A DNA stretch of 11,848 bases from assembly GCA_013329865.1 (NCBI GenBank), contig DUJJ01000135.1:2608-14455 (forward strand), written 5' to 3'. The notes below the pieces were generated by a model. It had not been told where the DNA came from, made no database searches, and worked only from the letters and a program-made list of their open reading frames with translations. The DNA is from Candidatus Poseidoniaceae archaeon (GTDB lineage: Archaea > Thermoplasmatota > Poseidoniia > Poseidoniales > Poseidoniaceae). Both the position numbers and the translations under genes were made by a program. Shown one piece after another: positions 6,455 to 11,848 of this stretch. Position 1 is the first letter of the stretch; each line of letters opens with the position of its first letter.

Positions 6455-6555
6455 ATAATTTAGTGACCGATTTGCTTTTGGAGTGGCGACCTTACCTGAA
6501 ATTATGGCAGCGTCAGCAGAAGATATTATCCAAATGCTGCGCCAGCGTAGAATGA
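6445..6555 (+). other. Short SD-preceded ORF overlapping cinA end and DP1 start
   Basis: An ATG at 6445 overlaps the cinA stop (TAG 6452-6454) and has a GAGGT Shine-Dalgarno match at 6437-6441. It opens 36 codons beginning Met-Glu-Leu-Asp-Asn-Leu-Val-Thr-Asp before a TGA at 6553-6555. The following DP1 frame has no good SD of its own. One extra T in the TTTT run at 6476-6479 would join this start in frame to DP1. It may be the true DP1 start interrupted by a natural or sequencing frameshift, a small coupling ORF, or chance. Confidence 0.25.
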
Positions 6556-8111
6556 TTGCCTCGGGCAAAGTTATTGGCAACTTGGCGGGTCACTCTAATC
6601 CTGCTGAATTACTTGACTTAGCCCCACGAGCAAACTTTGACCGGGGATTTCTTACCGAAGAGATACTGGGTCAATTGCTTGAACTATATCACCAGGAAAG
6701 CACCGACCGTGACAGCCCTAACCCTCCCAAAGCTGCAGCCAGTAATCCGTCAACCGATTTGGGCAGGGTTATTGCACCAATATTATCCGCCGAACCACTA
6801 GATATCAAATTCCGAAATAATCTCCCTGATTGGAATGCTACTGATTACAGTTGTTTAGCCACTGATGCACCATCAGATATCAAAATACACTACGATATTA
6901 CTGGGAAGAGCACTACAGAAGGAAAAATGAACGATATCACTGCATGTTTTTCCGACCGGCTCAATAAAATAAGAGATATGATAGTTAAAAATTCCAAATT
7001 ACCACGACGACCAACCGAAGTTTCGCGTTTATTACGCGAAGTTCACAGATTTCAAGGATATGAAAATAAAGCGGTTGTAATTGGACTGGTAAATGAACCT
7101 AGATACACGAAAAATGGACATTTAATGTGGTCAGTCGAAGATGAAACCGGTGAATTAAGATGTATGCTATACAAACCAAATAATGACAATAGGGACAGAT
7201 ATCAAGAACAAATTATCGAGGCTGGGTTAATGCCAGATGATGTTATTGGAGTTTCAGGACATTTCAACCAATCCGGTGAATTATTTATTGTCGATGATTT
7301 ATATTTCCCAATGAAAGACCGCCACCAAAAAACCGTTTCTCCTTACGGTGTTAGTGTCGCGTTCATATCAGATGTTCACTTGGGTTCAAAGACATTCCTC
7401 GAAGCACAGTGGCACAAAATGGCCAATTGGTTCCACACAGACCCACTGGCAAAGACGATTAAATATCTAATTCTATCAGGGGACTGCGTTGATGGAGTTG
7501 GTATTTATCCTGGCCAAGATAAAGAACTAGCAATCCCAGATGTTTATACTCAGTATTCCATGTTTGCAAAATTACTCGAATTATTACCAGATTGGGTTGA
7601 ATGCGTGATGCTACCAGGCAATCATGATGCAGTGCGCCCAGCAGAACCCCAACCTACTTTCGAAAAGGATATTCAACAAGACTACAACACAACCACATTT
7701 GTTGGGAACCCATGCGATTTCTCCCTGCATGGAGTAAGAGTATTATCGTATCATGGCAAATCCATTGATGACTTCGTCGCCGGTTTGAAAACTGTTACCT
7801 ATGCAGATCCGGTCGAGGCGATGCGACAAATGCTCAGAAGGAGACATTTGGCACCTCAATGGGGGGGTAAAACCCCGTTGTCTCCGGAACCTGAAGATGG
7901 ATTGGTAATCAACGAGGTTCCAGACATCTTCGTCACAGGCCACGTTCACGGACATGCCTGTGTTGATTTCAAGGGCACGACTCTAGTTTGTTCAAGTACT
8001 TGGCAAGACCAGACGTCATACCAACGAATGCTCGGTTTTCAGCCCAAGCCTTGTATGCTAACTATTGTAAATCTGGCAAGTCACGCAACAGTATCAATAC
8101 CGTTTGTTTGA
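6483..8111 (+). CDS. polB: DNA polymerase II (PolD) small subunit DP1
   Basis: A 542-residue subunit of the archaeal replicative D-family polymerase, carrying the 3'-5' proofreading exonuclease; the partner is DP2 (polC), not in this window. Residues 1-70 are helical, 71-150 look like a low-conservation linker, about 185-280 form an OB-fold, and 290-542 are an Mre11-like phosphodiesterase. All metal motifs are present: Ser-Asp-Val-His at 296-299, Gly-Asp at 333-334, Gly-Asn-His-Asp at 379-382, Tyr-His-Gly at 423-425 and Gly-His-Val-His at 486-489. The stretch Gly-Val-Gly-Ile-Tyr-Pro-Gly-Gln (338-345) is a DP1 hallmark. The start is uncertain: GTG 6483 is used here, ATG 6504 would remove seven residues, and neither has a clear SD. 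A better SD and ATG occur at 6445 in another frame. The stop codon abuts the stop of the convergent HAD gene. Confidence 0.93.
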   Translation: MATLPEIMAASAEDIIQMLRQRRMIASGKVIGNLAGHSNPAELLDLAPRANFDRGFLTEEILGQLLELYHQESTDRDSPNPPKAAASNPSTDLGRVIAPILSAEPLDIKFRNNLPDWNATDYSCLATDAPSDIKIHYDITGKSTTEGKMNDITACFSDRLNKIRDMIVKNSKLPRRPTEVSRLLREVHRFQGYENKAVVIGLVNEPRYTKNGHLMWSVEDETGELRCMLYKPNNDNRDRYQEQIIEAGLMPDDVIGVSGHFNQSGELFIVDDLYFPMKDRHQKTVSPYGVSVAFISDVHLGSKTFLEAQWHKMANWFHTDPLAKTIKYLILSGDCVDGVGIYPGQDKELAIPDVYTQYSMFAKLLELLPDWVECVMLPGNHDAVRPAEPQPTFEKDIQQDYNTTTFVGNPCDFSLHGVRVLSYHGKSIDDFVAGLKTVTYADPVEAMRQMLRRRHLAPQWGGKTPLSPEPEDGLVINEVPDIFVTGHVHGHACVDFKGTTLVCSSTWQDQTSYQRMLGFQPKPCMLTIVNLASHATVSIPFV

Positions 8112-8913: not shown

Positions 8914-9468
8914 TCAGACTGGTTGGTTCCAGGAAAGACCTGTGTAGGTCTTCAAGACCGCACCTTGGGTGTCACCGGCAGGTGAGTAGACAATCCTGAT
9001 AGTTGCATCAACTAGAGGTGTTCCGTCAGCAGCGTGAGTCTTGACGTAGATGTCATCGCCCGTGCTGAAAGAGGAGATTGTCTCATCCTCGTCTATTGTT
9101 ACAACATCACCAAAGGTAACGAGTTGATCGCTGTTGAACGGCGAGAACCCGTAAACTTGGTTGGTTGAAGCAAGGTTTGTCGTCTCAGTTACGATTGCAC
9201 CTGTGGCGTCAAGGTAGGTTACCGATACTTCTACAGCTTGGGTAGCCAATACGGTCTGTGCTTGTCCAACGGTAATCTTCCAGTGGTCAGTGGCAGTATC
9301 GCCAGTATCGACATTAGTAGCGTCAAAGGTAACTCTTGGAACACCCTTGGTATCAGTATCTGCAAGTTGTGCAGCCCAAACATATACCACACCAGATAGA
9401 ACAACAGTAATCGCAACCATCAAGATGGTGGCAATAACTGGGCTCACAGCTGATTCATCGTCAGACAT
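8914..9468 (-). other. Type IV pilin-like module inside the surface protein frame (possible separate product)
   Basis: From Met780 of the fusion (ATG at 9468) this part alone would be a normal 184-residue archaeal pilin. It starts Met-Ser-Asp-Asp-Glu-Ser-Ala, followed by Val-Ser-Pro-Val-Ile-Ala-Thr-Ile-Leu-Met-Val-Ala-Ile-Thr-Val, very close to the signal peptide and hydrophobic helix of haloarchaeal PilA proteins (archaeal type IV pilin N-terminal domain, DUF1628). By analogy the prepilin peptidase would cut after Ala786. The head domain (about 814-963) is Thr/Asp/Val-rich with beta-strand patterns. No clear SD precedes ATG 9468, so an internal start is less supported than release by cleavage. 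Confidence 0.7.
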
Positions 9469-11848
9469 TTGCTCTTCTTGGAACTCTTCTTCGTCATCAT
9501 CTCTGCGTCCTGCAAGGACTAGAGCGCTGACAAACAGGCCGGTTAGAGCGACTGCAATGATGCTTGGTGCGAATGATGCAACGGATAGAGCACCGATAGT
9601 CGATACTACGACTGGCAGGGCATTACCTGCAGTTTGCCAGTCTTCTCCGAAGGCACCGTTGTATCCTTGTTCTGTGTGACCACAAGACGGGGATTCACTC
9701 CATGCAACTTCGTTGCCGCCATTGGTAGACATCATGTTGTTACACCAGTTCTTGTCTTCAAACGCAGGTCTTCTGTTGGATTGTGCACCATTAGCATCCT
9801 CACCAATTCTACCTGGCTCAGACCACTTTCCGAATACCTGGCTGCTTGACACAGCGTTGTGGGATTCTGGGTTATCAGTCTGGATATCGTTGTTGTCTGG
9901 TGTGCACGCAGATCCTGGGTTACAGGTGACTACATCAACTTCCACCCACACTTCTGTGGTTTGGTCAGTAATCAGGATATCCCAGTCTTGGATGTCTAGT
10001 GATTGACCAAACGCAGGTGGTGAGTAGTAACGTGGTAGTTCAATCTCAGTGTGTCCATCAGAGTGTAGTGATACAACTAGTAGATGGTTGTAGGTGTATG
10101 GTCCTTCGTCGCCACCAGCAAAGATGCTGAAGTCAACTGGAACCATAGTTCCCGGCATAATGTTGCTGACTCTGTTAAAGTCAAAGCCTTCTGTAGCGTC
10201 TAGGTAGTAATCTGGCACATTCTCTGCAACGTTGTCAACCTCAACCGATAGGGTTACTGACACACTCTCTTGCACGTAGTTGTTAGGTGTTAGTGCTGTG
10301 TAGTTTGGCATGTAACTTGGTGGTTGTGGGCTGTCCGCTAGGGTCAGTGTCATCTCACAACGGCCGTTTGCAGTTCTGGTCTGGTGGATACCGTTGTTGT
10401 TGAGCATGTCAACTTCCCACGGTTCTGCGTTAGTGGTTGCATCAGGTATCAAGGTGAACTCAAGAGTGTCACCGTTGATGCTGTGTGTGTAGTAGTTTCC
10501 AGAGTTACAGGTGTTGGTATCTGTCAGAGTCCATGTTAGATCTGCATCGAGGTGGTCGATATCAGTCTTGATGTCTGATAGATCGAAGGTCAATGCATCA
10601 GCATCGGTTGTGTCCTCAACTAGGTCCAATCGGTAGTTGTCACCGTCATTGACGAATGATGTGCTACCATCAGTGGATGTAACAATTCCAGCCTTACCGG
10701 CTAGATTCGTTCCAGGGTAAACAAACTCTGGAACGTCGTTAACTGGAGCGACTTCGAACAATACCGTTACCGGGTCGGCGTCAGTATTCTCGTTGCCGTC
10801 ATCAGACAGAGTTAGTGTGATGGCACAAATTCCACCATACTCCCAGTTTTGGTTCTCAACGATTACAATCTCATCGACTAAGTTAGCATTCTGTGCAAGG
10901 CTGACTGAGATTTGGTCACAGTCTGCGCTAGCTCCCCAAGAGTAAACTTGGTTCACAGGGTCTTGCTCGTTAGCCATGTCTCTGATGAAAGAGTTGATGC
11001 TGTCGTTAGCTACCTTACCTAGAGGCTTGCTGTAACTGGTGAACCCTTCGTCTCTCGAGTTGTAGCGGTCGCCAGCAGCATCAGCATATAGGTAGATGTC
11101 ACCGTTGTCACAGTCTGGGTCAACATCGTTTCTTGCGTCACAAATGACCGGTGCGTCGTTAACGTTGAACACCTCGTAGACGATTGTCTTGCTTGCGGTT
11201 TGTCCATGGCTGTCAACTACCTCAAAGGTCAATTCGAAGGTTCCGAACTGGTCATTGATTGGTGTTACGTCATAGGTTCCCGTTACGCCTGATAGGTCAC
11301 TGAAGTCGGTCAATATGTTTGCGAACGCATCCATGTTACCACCAGTAACGTCCCATAGCATATCTGCCTCAATGTCTTGCTCGTCATCGACATATGTTGC
11401 AAGGTCAAGAGTTATTGCTCCTGAGTCTTCTAATACTGCGATATCAGCCAAGTTAGAGGTAATCTCTGGACAGGCTCTCAGTATGTCGAAAGTCAGAGAT
11501 TGGCTCTGATCCATTGTCACTCCAGTGGCAGTTGCCCAATCATAGTCACAAGTGTGTCTTGCTTCGGCAGCTGTCTTGACCATCACGCTGTATGTGTGCG
11601 GTGCGGTTGGTGTAGAACTAAACTCGAATGCCCTGTGCATTAGAACCTCGTTCTCAATAGTTCCGTCAGCCATATCTAACTTGTTCAATTCAAGATCGTA
11701 TGCTTCTGTCAGTGTCTCTGCGCCGGTGCCAGTAATTGTCTGGCTTGGGCTGACTGCAGTCACAGTGTCTGTGCCAACGGCTTGGACGGTTGCAACTATG
11801 TTCATGCTGTCAACAGATGAGCCGCCAAGTGAACTTGCTGGTACGGAT
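8914..11848 (-). CDS. Cadherin/Ig-like surface protein fused to a type IV pilin-like module (5' partial)
   Basis: One open minus-strand frame running off the right edge. The ATG at 11805 is not the real start: the 14 codons upstream to the edge are open and similar in style (Ser/Gly-rich). Residues are counted from that Met. Positions 112-535 hold beta-rich modules separated by Val-Asn-Asp-Ala-Pro (215-219) and Val-Asn-Asp-Val-Pro (355-359), the linker typical of bacterial cadherin/Ig-like repeats; a third, less regular module ends near 528. There are Asp-rich, probably calcium-binding stretches (e.g. 227-246), scattered cysteine pairs and N-glycosylation sequons (267, 501). A Cys/Asn-rich region (628-727) is followed by a hydrophobic anchor (about 729-766), the stop-transfer Arg-Arg and an acidic linker (767-785), then a complete pilin N-terminal motif (786-813) and a 150-residue beta-rich domain. 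Surface adhesin or pilus-associated function is inferred. The fusion is continuous, without a stop or frame change. Confidence 0.85.
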   Translation of the reverse strand, partial: SVPASSLGGSSVDSMNIVATVQAVGTDTVTAVSPSQTITGTGAETLTEAYDLELNKLDMADGTIENEVLMHRAFEFSSTPTAPHTYSVMVKTAAEARHTCDYDWATATGVTMDQSQSLTFDILRACPEITSNLADIAVLEDSGAITLDLATYVDDEQDIEADMLWDVTGGNMDAFANILTDFSDLSGVTGTYDVTPINDQFGTFELTFEVVDSHGQTASKTIVYEVFNVNDAPVICDARNDVDPDCDNGDIYLYADAAGDRYNSRDEGFTSYSKPLGKVANDSINSFIRDMANEQDPVNQVYSWGASADCDQISVSLAQNANLVDEIVIVENQNWEYGGICAITLTLSDDGNENTDADPVTVLFEVAPVNDVPEFVYPGTNLAGKAGIVTSTDGSTSFVNDGDNYRLDLVEDTTDADALTFDLSDIKTDIDHLDADLTWTLTDTNTCNSGNYYTHSINGDTLEFTLIPDATTNAEPWEVDMLNNNGIHQTRTANGRCEMTLTLADSPQPPSYMPNYTALTPNNYVQESVSVTLSVEVDNVAENVPDYYLDATEGFDFNRVSNIMPGTMVPVDFSIFAGGDEGPYTYNHLLVVSLHSDGHTEIELPRYYSPPAFGQSLDIQDWDILITDQTTEVWVEVDVVTCNPGSACTPDNNDIQTDNPESHNAVSSSQVFGKWSEPGRIGEDANGAQSNRRPAFEDKNWCNNMMSTNGGNEVAWSESPSCGHTEQGYNGAFGEDWQTAGNALPVVVSTIGALSVASFAPSIIAVALTGLFVSALVLAGRRDDDEEEFQEEQMSDDESAVSPVIATILMVAITVVLSGVVYVWAAQLADTDTKGVPRVTFDATNVDTGDTATDHWKITVGQAQTVLATQAVEVSVTYLDATGAIVTETTNLASTNQVYGFSPFNSDQLVTFGDVVTIDEDETISSFSTGDDIYVKTHAADGTPLVDATIRIVYSPAGDTQGAVLKTYTGLSWNQPV
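11305..11848 (-). other. Right-edge N-terminal part of the surface protein, truncated by the window
   Basis: Between about residue 112 of the visible frame and the window edge, a Thr/Ala/Asp-rich segment precedes and enters the first clear cadherin/Ig-like module. It holds two cysteines (86, 112) before the module and the phrase Thr-Tyr-Ser-Val-Met-Val (71-76), suggesting another beta-sandwich. No signal peptide is visible, so it must be upstream of the window. Confidence 0.5.

What the first reader, a model, noticed from the sequence alone, without database searches (positions are those of the whole stretch)
8914..11848. Adhesin and type IV pilin encoded as one frame, possibly a two-product polyprotein
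A large cadherin/Ig-like extracellular region, a membrane anchor with Arg-Arg stop-transfer, an acidic 19-residue linker and an entire pilin precursor follow one another in a single frame. The topology works: the linker would be cytosolic, exactly where the archaeal prepilin peptidase (PibD) cuts. One cut after Ala786 would free a mature pilin and leave a membrane-anchored adhesin, fixing their ratio at 1:1. Alternatively the uncut protein could be a pilus anchor, with the large domain tied to the pilus base. Prepilin motifs normally sit at the N-terminus of a precursor, so one placed after about 780 residues and another membrane segment is unusual. The motifs and open frame are seen; processing is inferred.
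Basis: partly seen in the sequence, partly recalled or inferred. Interest (0 to 1): 0.75.

Follow-up and report, generated by a model that had tools for sequence, protein, structure and literature searches.

The report
Giant adhesin ending in a pilin
Abundant ocean-surface archaea make one giant surface protein of about 4,500 to 5,500 amino acids that ends in a complete pilus-building subunit, which may be cut free at the membrane, an arrangement opposite to that of known adhesive pilins.

Summary
The window shows only the last 977 residues of a protein cut by the contig end. Intact frames in relatives are about 4,500-5,500 aa. Order: N-terminal signal segment, huge extracellular region, one transmembrane segment, Arg stop plus 17-22-residue acidic linker, complete prepilin.

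The fusion is widespread in Poseidoniales: strong tail matches in 149 of 292 class genomes, 15 genera, both families (my count). In 195 of 195 loci (127 distinct junctions) Ala precedes VSPVIA and no stop lies within 45 residues upstream. In 10 of 122 genomes the giant body came without a strong tail match; all 10 run off a contig end. Internal starts are not conserved. The genome has a FlaK/PibD-like peptidase and pilus ATPase/platform genes. The giant follows type IV pili, not the archaellum.

Most likely one cytosolic cut releases a pilin and leaves an anchored adhesin (0.6). An uncut pilus-base tether stays open: Poseidoniaceae fused sites lack the charged -2 residue called critical in archaea, though their archaellins appear to lack it too. 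No processing was shown.

The parts
8914..11848 (-). C-terminal 977 residues of the giant adhesin-pilin gene; 5' end cut by the contig end
   Evidence: open frame; contig end; intact homologous frames of 4,520-5,478 aa stop to stop
9619..11848 (-). last part of the extracellular adhesin region; weak cadherin-like / tandem-95 similarity
   Evidence: Cadherin_5 and NF012211 below their cut-offs
9565..9618 (-). conserved juxtamembrane stretch LPVVVSTIGALSVASFAP
   Evidence: invariant L97, P98, V101, A106, V109, S111, F112, P114 in 15 sequences; coordinates
9508..9564 (-). transmembrane anchor (TM1)
   Evidence: hydrophobicity scan of five intact homologues; helix 113-138 of the 330-aa model; coordinates
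9448..9507 (-). Arg-Arg stop-transfer and acidic linker ending in Ala (-1 of the prepilin site)
   Evidence: 17-22 aa counted from the first Arg/Lys, net charge -5 to -9 in 109 sequences; Ala at -1 in 127 of 127
9361..9447 (-). class III (prepilin) hydrophobic domain VSPVIATILMVAITVVLSGVVYVWAAQLA, start of the predicted mature pilin
   Evidence: PF07790 and TIGR02537; conserved in alignments of 15 and 32 sequences
8917..9447 (-). predicted mature pilin, 177 aa
   Evidence: AlphaFold2 helix 3-29 plus eight strands, pLDDT 80.4, pTM 0.68; best PDB match H. volcanii type IV pilus 8fj5
9466..9468 (-). in-frame internal ATG that could start a 184-aa prepilin; not conserved

Best explanation
The gene encodes a giant surface adhesin whose C-terminus is a full type IV prepilin. 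Shown by sequence: an N-terminal hydrophobic signal segment, a very long region after it, one transmembrane segment, an Arg stop and an acidic linker of about 19 residues, then the class III pilin signal and a pilin head. Inferred: the first segment starts export, TM1 stops it and places the linker in the cytosol, and the pilin H-domain re-enters the membrane with its head outside. The resident FlaK/PibD-like peptidase then cuts after Ala, freeing the N-terminus of a pilin for the type IV pilus machinery and leaving a giant adhesin anchored by a TM/Arg/acidic tail. Each protein made would give one adhesin and one (probably minor) pilin.
For: Strong tail matches in 149 of 292 class genomes, 15 genera, both families (my count). 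Body in 122 of 292; the 10 of these 122 without a strong tail match all run off a contig end. With positions -1 to +6 left free, Ala|VSPVIA in 127 of 127 distinct junctions (195 of 195 loci hit) and Ala in 120 of 120 listed database giants, while -2 takes ten residue types. Hydrophobic domain almost unchanged in 15 tails whose identity to the window is 41-79%. Only three hydrophobic segments in four of five intact homologues; L043 has one more weak one at 306-324. Peptidase: PF06847 over the cut-off in the own genome, FlaK 3s0x match in which GGAD aligns with GGGD, and an upstream D..R..N stretch that I recall as the first catalytic Asp motif; PF06847 in 44 of 59 genomes, 37 over the cut-off, two very weak. 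T2SSE in 44 of 59 and T2SSF beside one in the own genome. Giants occur with type IV pilus ATPases but no archaellin (g7 six genomes, g22 two) and not in four g4 genomes with archaellin and one ATPase type. The mature domain folds as a pilin. The neighbouring surface protein also ends TM, Arg, acidic tail.
Against: No processing data. A charged residue at -2 is described as critical for archaeal prepilins (PMC4371748 section 8), yet f1-type fused sites have it in only 5 of 106, against 25 of 26 stand-alone f1 pilins, mostly of one genus; f2 fused sites have it in 20 of 24. Partly answered: 43 of 43 archaellins read also have an uncharged -2 if cut at the canonical place, which I recall. The leader is a whole 4,000-residue protein, not a short peptide. 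Peptidase_A24 PF01478 found nothing in 59 genomes; the candidate rests on PF06847 and a modest FlaK match. In the own genome the T2SSE genes, the peptidase and the other pilins lie on other contigs than the giant. The Foldseek match has a large rmsd (9.3) and TM-scores of 0.42/0.54.
Confidence: 0.6

Rival explanations
1. The protein stays whole. The pilin part joins the base of a type IV pilus (or its inner-membrane complex) while TM1 and the giant adhesin tether it, so the adhesin is held at the pilus base as an anchor.
For: The linker can loop between two membrane helices (330-aa model, low-confidence linker between helices 113-138 and 156-182). Fused f1-type sites lack the charged -2 residue that stand-alone f1 pilins keep: 5 of 106 against 25 of 26. 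No split into two genes was seen in the genome loci read.
Against: Ala at -1 is invariant although -2 and -6 vary, which a mere loop does not require. Family f2 sites have a charged -2 in 20 of 24. Archaellins of these genomes also appear to have an uncharged -2. Prepilins have to be processed before assembly in known systems (PMC10191384 passage; PMC4371748 section 8).
Confidence: 0.28
2. Two products arise by internal translation start: the long frame makes the fused protein, and a start codon in the linker makes an ordinary prepilin.
For: The window has ATG at 9468 giving MSDDESA|VSPV, a normal-looking prepilin. Some short database proteins begin at such a Met.
Against: 40 of 109 junctions have no ATG, GTG or TTG four or more residues before the site; at the place of the window's ATG relatives have ATT, ATA, ATC, CTA or CTC, besides some with ATG.
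Confidence: 0.04
3. The pilin-like tail is only a second membrane anchor or export/retention signal of the adhesin and never joins a filament.
For: In the own genome the giant lies on another contig than the T2SSE, peptidase and other pilin genes.
Against: A complete pilin head with invariant residues is kept in the 15 aligned tails, with a pilin fold; every genome with a strong tail match in the 59 searched also has T2SSE.
Confidence: 0.06
4. Artefact: misassembly or a single-strain loss of a stop codon joined two adjacent genes.
For: The window comes from a 207-contig, 71.5%-complete genome. Frames are broken far upstream in G003 and G021.
Against: Strong tail matches in 15 genera and two families, in a single-contig genome and in isolate AH-273-F07.
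Confidence: 0.01

Closest known systems
Archaeal type IV pilins with the PF07790 N-terminus (for example Haloferax PilA)
   Same: Same kind of site (Haloferax DAVS/RAVS, PMC4371748 table), hydrophobic helix, beta-rich head; best solved match is the H. volcanii pilus 8fj5.
   Different: There the class III signal is N-terminal with a short leader; here it follows about 4,300-5,300 residues and another membrane segment.
Modular (grafted-adhesin) type IV pilins, such as S. sanguinis PilB/PilC, and the long Thermoplasmatota pilins read here
   Same: One polypeptide joins a pilin to another, in S. sanguinis adhesive, region (PMC10191384 passages).
   Different: In the long Thermoplasmatota pilins the pilin comes first: 20 of 20 long frames from the wider phylum that I fetched (chosen from a capped list) have the site at residue 7-133 of the stop-to-stop frame. 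Here the order is reversed and an anchor lies between.
FlaK/PibD archaeal prepilin peptidases
   Same: Candidate in the own genome with PF06847 and FlaK 3s0x similarity including the GGAD motif.
   Different: About 340 aa and far below NCBIfam's FlaK cut-off (27.1 of 330 bits); its substrate would be an internal site.
Non-pilin tip adhesins such as PilY1/PilC
   Same: Adhesin functionally linked to type IV pili.
   Different: PilC/PilY1 is a non-pilin effector at the pilus tip (PMC10191384 passages); here the pilin is part of the adhesin's own frame.

Membership tests
Archaeal type IV pilin (PF07790 / TIGR02537) | Class III signal: small residue at -1 followed by the hydrophobic domain | tested here: met
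   PF07790 E 3.7e-8, TIGR02537 E 9.8e-11; Ala at -1 in 127 of 127
Archaeal type IV pilin (PF07790 / TIGR02537) | Signal at the N-terminus of the precursor | tested here: not met
   Site lies about 4,300-5,300 residues in, after another membrane segment
Archaeal type IV pilin (PF07790 / TIGR02537) | Charged residue at -2 of the cut site | tested here: inconclusive
   Fused f1-type 5 of 106, fused f2 20 of 24, stand-alone 27 of 30; archaellins 0 of 43 if cut at the recalled place
Archaeal type IV pilin (PF07790 / TIGR02537) | N-terminal helix with beta head | tested here: met
   Model pLDDT 80.4; Foldseek 8fj5 E 3.5e-5, TM-score 0.42/0.54, rmsd 9.3
Archaeal type IV pilin (PF07790 / TIGR02537) | Pilus ATPase, platform and prepilin peptidase in the genome | tested here: met
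   T2SSE three places and PF06847 one place in G000; T2SSF in L059
Archaeal type IV pilin (PF07790 / TIGR02537) | Incorporation into a filament | not testable with these tools
   needs purified pili
Modular pilin (pilin with grafted adhesin) | Adhesive domain C-terminal to an N-terminal pilin module | tested here: not met
   Order is adhesin, anchor, linker, pilin
Two-product polyprotein | One conserved open frame holding two distinct modules | tested here: met
Two-product polyprotein | Cleavage between the modules | not testable with these tools
   site and protease gene present, processing not observed

The most novel reading that the evidence does not exclude
An internal class III signal is genuinely processed: prepilin peptidase acts as a polyprotein protease, cutting between two membrane segments to make a membrane-anchored giant adhesin and a pilin in fixed 1:1 ratio. 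This would be an exception to the rule that prepilins carry an N-terminal signal, conserved across Poseidoniales lineages that have type IV pili.
Probability: 0.55. Interest if true: 0.85.

Novelty: new variant of a known kind. Interest (0 to 1): 0.72.

Why it matters
A 2023 review states that prepilins invariably display an N-terminal class III signal (PMC10191384, passage). Here is a conserved counter-architecture in an order described as the most abundant planktonic archaea of ocean surface waters (PMC6461757, abstract in the listing). It is easy to overlook: where a source names these 4,500-aa proteins at all, the names seen are mostly 'type IV pilin' or 'FlaG/FlaF family flagellin'. If cut, it couples adhesin and pilin dose and shows prepilin peptidase working inside a polyprotein; if uncut, it is a covalent adhesin anchor at a pilus base. 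Either way it bears on how these archaea, proposed to use flagella genes for particle adhesion (PMC6461757 passages), attach to particles.

Tried and rejected
Stops in the linker: ten genomes were flagged with a stop inside the match (nine TGA, one TAG); reading those ten among 20 loci showed the normal C-terminal stops. Giant without pilin: 10 of 122 body genomes had no strong tail match; all 10 frames run off a contig end. Internal start: rejected. Peptidase_A24 PF01478 gave 0 of 59; PF06847 found the candidate, so absence of one Pfam family was not absence of the enzyme. The -2 charge rule first looked like evidence against cutting; archaellins weakened that (of 52 printed rows I dropped 7 FlaF/FlaG-like and 2 unrelated ones; the archaellin cut position is recalled). 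Tree of pilin domains (46 rows: 17 fused thinned by similarity, 29 stand-alone): fused and stand-alone are clustered (2 changes against 13.9 in shuffles), but two stand-alone groups sit inside the fused rows on very long branches, so rooting and number of fusion events are unresolved. Literature searches (open-access library only, listings seen) showed no description of this architecture; they are not proof of absence from print.

Short database proteins (100 hits): 37 show TM1 upstream by my pattern, the other 63 do not, mostly because the record starts inside the anchor, linker or pilin, in a few because the anchor is changed. Four (P0151, P0177, P0188, P0196) pair a stand-alone-type leader (RNEEA) with a fused-type mature pilin on contigs of 623-1,370 bases; chimeric assembly at the near-identical H-domain is likely but not shown, and real split copies are not excluded there.

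Counting rules: the pattern allowed only small or aliphatic residues at -1 and needed 55 open residues upstream, so I recounted with -1 to +6 free and no such demand (195 of 195 loci, 127 distinct, all Ala|VSPVIA, none with a stop within 45 residues). The -2 figures (110 = 109 plus L042, which my pattern had filed as stand-alone) and the 24 f2 rows (20 new, not thinned) still rest on the stricter patterns. The motif used to count charged -2 sites follows FlaFind as I recall it. The 149 of 292 is my count of genomes with best E of 1.8e-33 or better; rows for the weakest were not printed and not all were read; genera g11, g12, g14 and g17 rest on match rows, not on reading by handle. Of 120 listed giants (257 found) 119 fit the TM1-plus-site pattern; P0014 has CC in place of RR.
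Full report
What is there. The minus-strand frame 8914-11848 is open without a stop for 977 codons. It runs to the contig end (contig 14,455 bases), so the N-terminus is missing. Pilin_N (PF07790) and the archaellin/pilin signal (TIGR02537) match near residue 800; the cadherin-like match is below its cut-off. Just upstream lie one hydrophobic segment (9508-9564), Arg-Arg and an acidic linker (9448-9507).

The whole protein. Stretches from relatives give open frames (stop to stop) of 5,368 (L035), 4,591 (L036), 4,625 (L037), 5,478 (L038), 4,630 (L039), 4,642 (L042), 4,585 (L043), 5,404 (L044), 4,520 (L045), 4,564 (L046) and 4,597 aa (L049). In two others, L040 and L041, the frame is broken far upstream, and L047 and L048 are cut by their stretch. 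The eleven align over their length with many gaps; identity in 100-residue steps, taken over five of them, runs from 0.17 to 0.59 and peaks at the pilin signal. A Kyte-Doolittle scan of five finds hydrophobic segments at the N-terminus, at TM1 and at the pilin H-domain, plus one weak extra in L043. Pfam finds little in the body: weak NosD and cadherin-like matches, beta-helix or NosD in some database giants, and in the f2 homologues L037 and L043 a plastocyanin-type domain. Neighbours, read by eye: in 12 of 15 loci a large protein with a C-terminal TM, Arg and acidic tail upstream; downstream in several a HAD-like gene (HAD by Pfam in the window) and in 11 a gene like window 6483-8111.

Conservation of the junction. 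With the last 330 residues of 15 homologues as a model (A1), 198 of 292 genomes of the class match at 1e-8; by my count 149 of these reach 1.8e-33 or better, in 11 genera of family f1 and 4 of f2. The other 49 include 20 genomes of a third family (f3) with only weaker matches, which I take for ordinary pilins and did not read. In 195 of 195 loci no stop lies within 45 residues before the site. The body, searched with an alignment of about residues 1001-1600 (A2), is in 122 of 292 genomes, only in genera that also have the fused tail; the 10 of these without a strong tail match are all cut by contig ends. Fusion is the only state seen in the genome loci read.

The site. Over 127 distinct junctions, with -1 to +6 left free, the sequence is Ala|VSPVIA in all; in 120 of 120 listed database giants Ala is at -1. 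Over 110 junctions -3 is acidic in 108 and -4 is Asp in 101; over 109 the linker is 17-22 aa with net charge -5 to -9. The -2 residue is charged in 5 of 106 f1-type fused sites, 20 of 24 f2 fused sites and 27 of 30 stand-alone pilins. A review says charge at -2 is critical in archaea (PMC4371748 section 8). Against that, 43 of 43 archaellins read have Ile, Leu, Trp, Val, Phe, Ser, Met or Tyr at -2 if cut at the canonical place, which I recall. So the rule in Poseidoniales may be looser, and the f1/f2 difference is a natural test.

Machinery. The own genome has one PF06847 (archaeal peptidase A24 C-terminal type II) gene of 339 aa, similar to FlaK 3s0x with GGAD aligned to GGGD, and a D..R..N stretch that I recall as the first Asp motif, three T2SSE ATPase matches and T2SSF platform genes; these lie on other contigs than the giant. 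Among f2 genera, g7 (six genomes) and g22 (two) have no archaellin at 0.001 and carry ATPases of 412-440 and 513-522 aa (283 aa in G121 and 443 aa in G244 excepted); seven of these eight have a strong tail match, and the eighth, G260, has the body cut by a contig end. Four g4 genomes have archaellin and one ATPase of 581-585 aa but no strong tail and no body (G241 has a weak tail match of 3.4e-10). The giant therefore goes with type IV pili, not with the archaellum.

Structure. The mature tail is predicted as a helix (3-29) and eight strands (pLDDT 80.4, pTM 0.68); best solved match is the H. volcanii pilus (E 3.5e-5, TM-scores 0.42/0.54, rmsd 9.3), then the Cuniculiplasma filament and archaella. 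The 330-aa model has helix 113-138 (TM1), a low-confidence linker and helix 156-182 (mean pLDDT 61.6).

Reading. The anatomy is that of an anchored surface protein followed by a prepilin. The most economical mechanism is a cytosolic cut by the resident peptidase, giving a pilin and an anchored adhesin; the invariant Ala beside a variable -2 supports recognition there. An uncut tether at a pilus base is the main rival. Cleavage, stoichiometry and assembly are inferred, not shown.

Novelty. Joining adhesins to pilins is known, with the adhesive domain grafted onto a pilin (modular pilins; PMC10191384 passages), and in 20 of 20 long frames fetched from other Thermoplasmatota the pilin site comes first. 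The reverse order with an internal class III signal did not turn up in my searches of a held open-access library. I place it as a new variant of a known kind. Papers: passages only for PMC6461757, PMC10191384, PMC4858521 and PMC4187195; section 8 and passages for PMC4371748.

Noticed in passing
L057, L278-L307 (archaellin loci): Poseidoniales archaellin precursors appear to have an uncharged residue at -2 (43 of 43 read, cut place recalled), unlike the rule given for archaeal prepilins; their peptidase specificity may differ.
   Followed up: partly
L066 2157-6443 (-), L067 3500-6637 (+): Stand-alone pilins in frames of 1,429 and 1,046 aa end in YHC.PHPSMTGTIIV, which looks like a blue-copper (cupredoxin) site (motif recalled): a pilin carrying a plastocyanin-like domain.
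   Followed up: no
L037 giant residues 3193-3275; L043 residues 3179-3259: A plastocyanin/azurin-type domain (PF00127, over the cut-off) lies inside two f2 giant adhesins.
   Followed up: no
G028 C15/C20, G166 C9/C1, G272 C32/C36, G146 C240/C157: Some genomes carry two matches to the giant gene tail.
   Followed up: no
P0151, P0177, P0188, P0196: Short-contig proteins join a stand-alone-type leader to a fused-type mature pilin; likely chimeric assemblies at the near-identical H-domain, but split copies or gene conversion are not excluded.
   Followed up: partly
L040 (G003), L041 (G021): The giant frame is broken into two overlapping frames far upstream of the junction in two genomes of about 10 contigs; sequencing error or real break not distinguished.
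   Followed up: no
L035-L040, L042-L046, L049, upstream of the giant: A large protein, also with a C-terminal TM, Arg and acidic tail, precedes the giant gene in 12 of 15 loci; two examples (1,026 and 1,032 aa) have no Pfam match at 0.01.
   Followed up: partly
L225: A record titled uncultured Rhodobiaceae bacterium carries the archaeal giant tail, so that bin is probably contaminated.
   Followed up: no
window 9565-9618: The juxtamembrane stretch before TM1 (LPxVVxxxxAxSVxSFAPS) is unusually conserved for a plain anchor; it might be a further processing or sortase-like signal.
   Followed up: no
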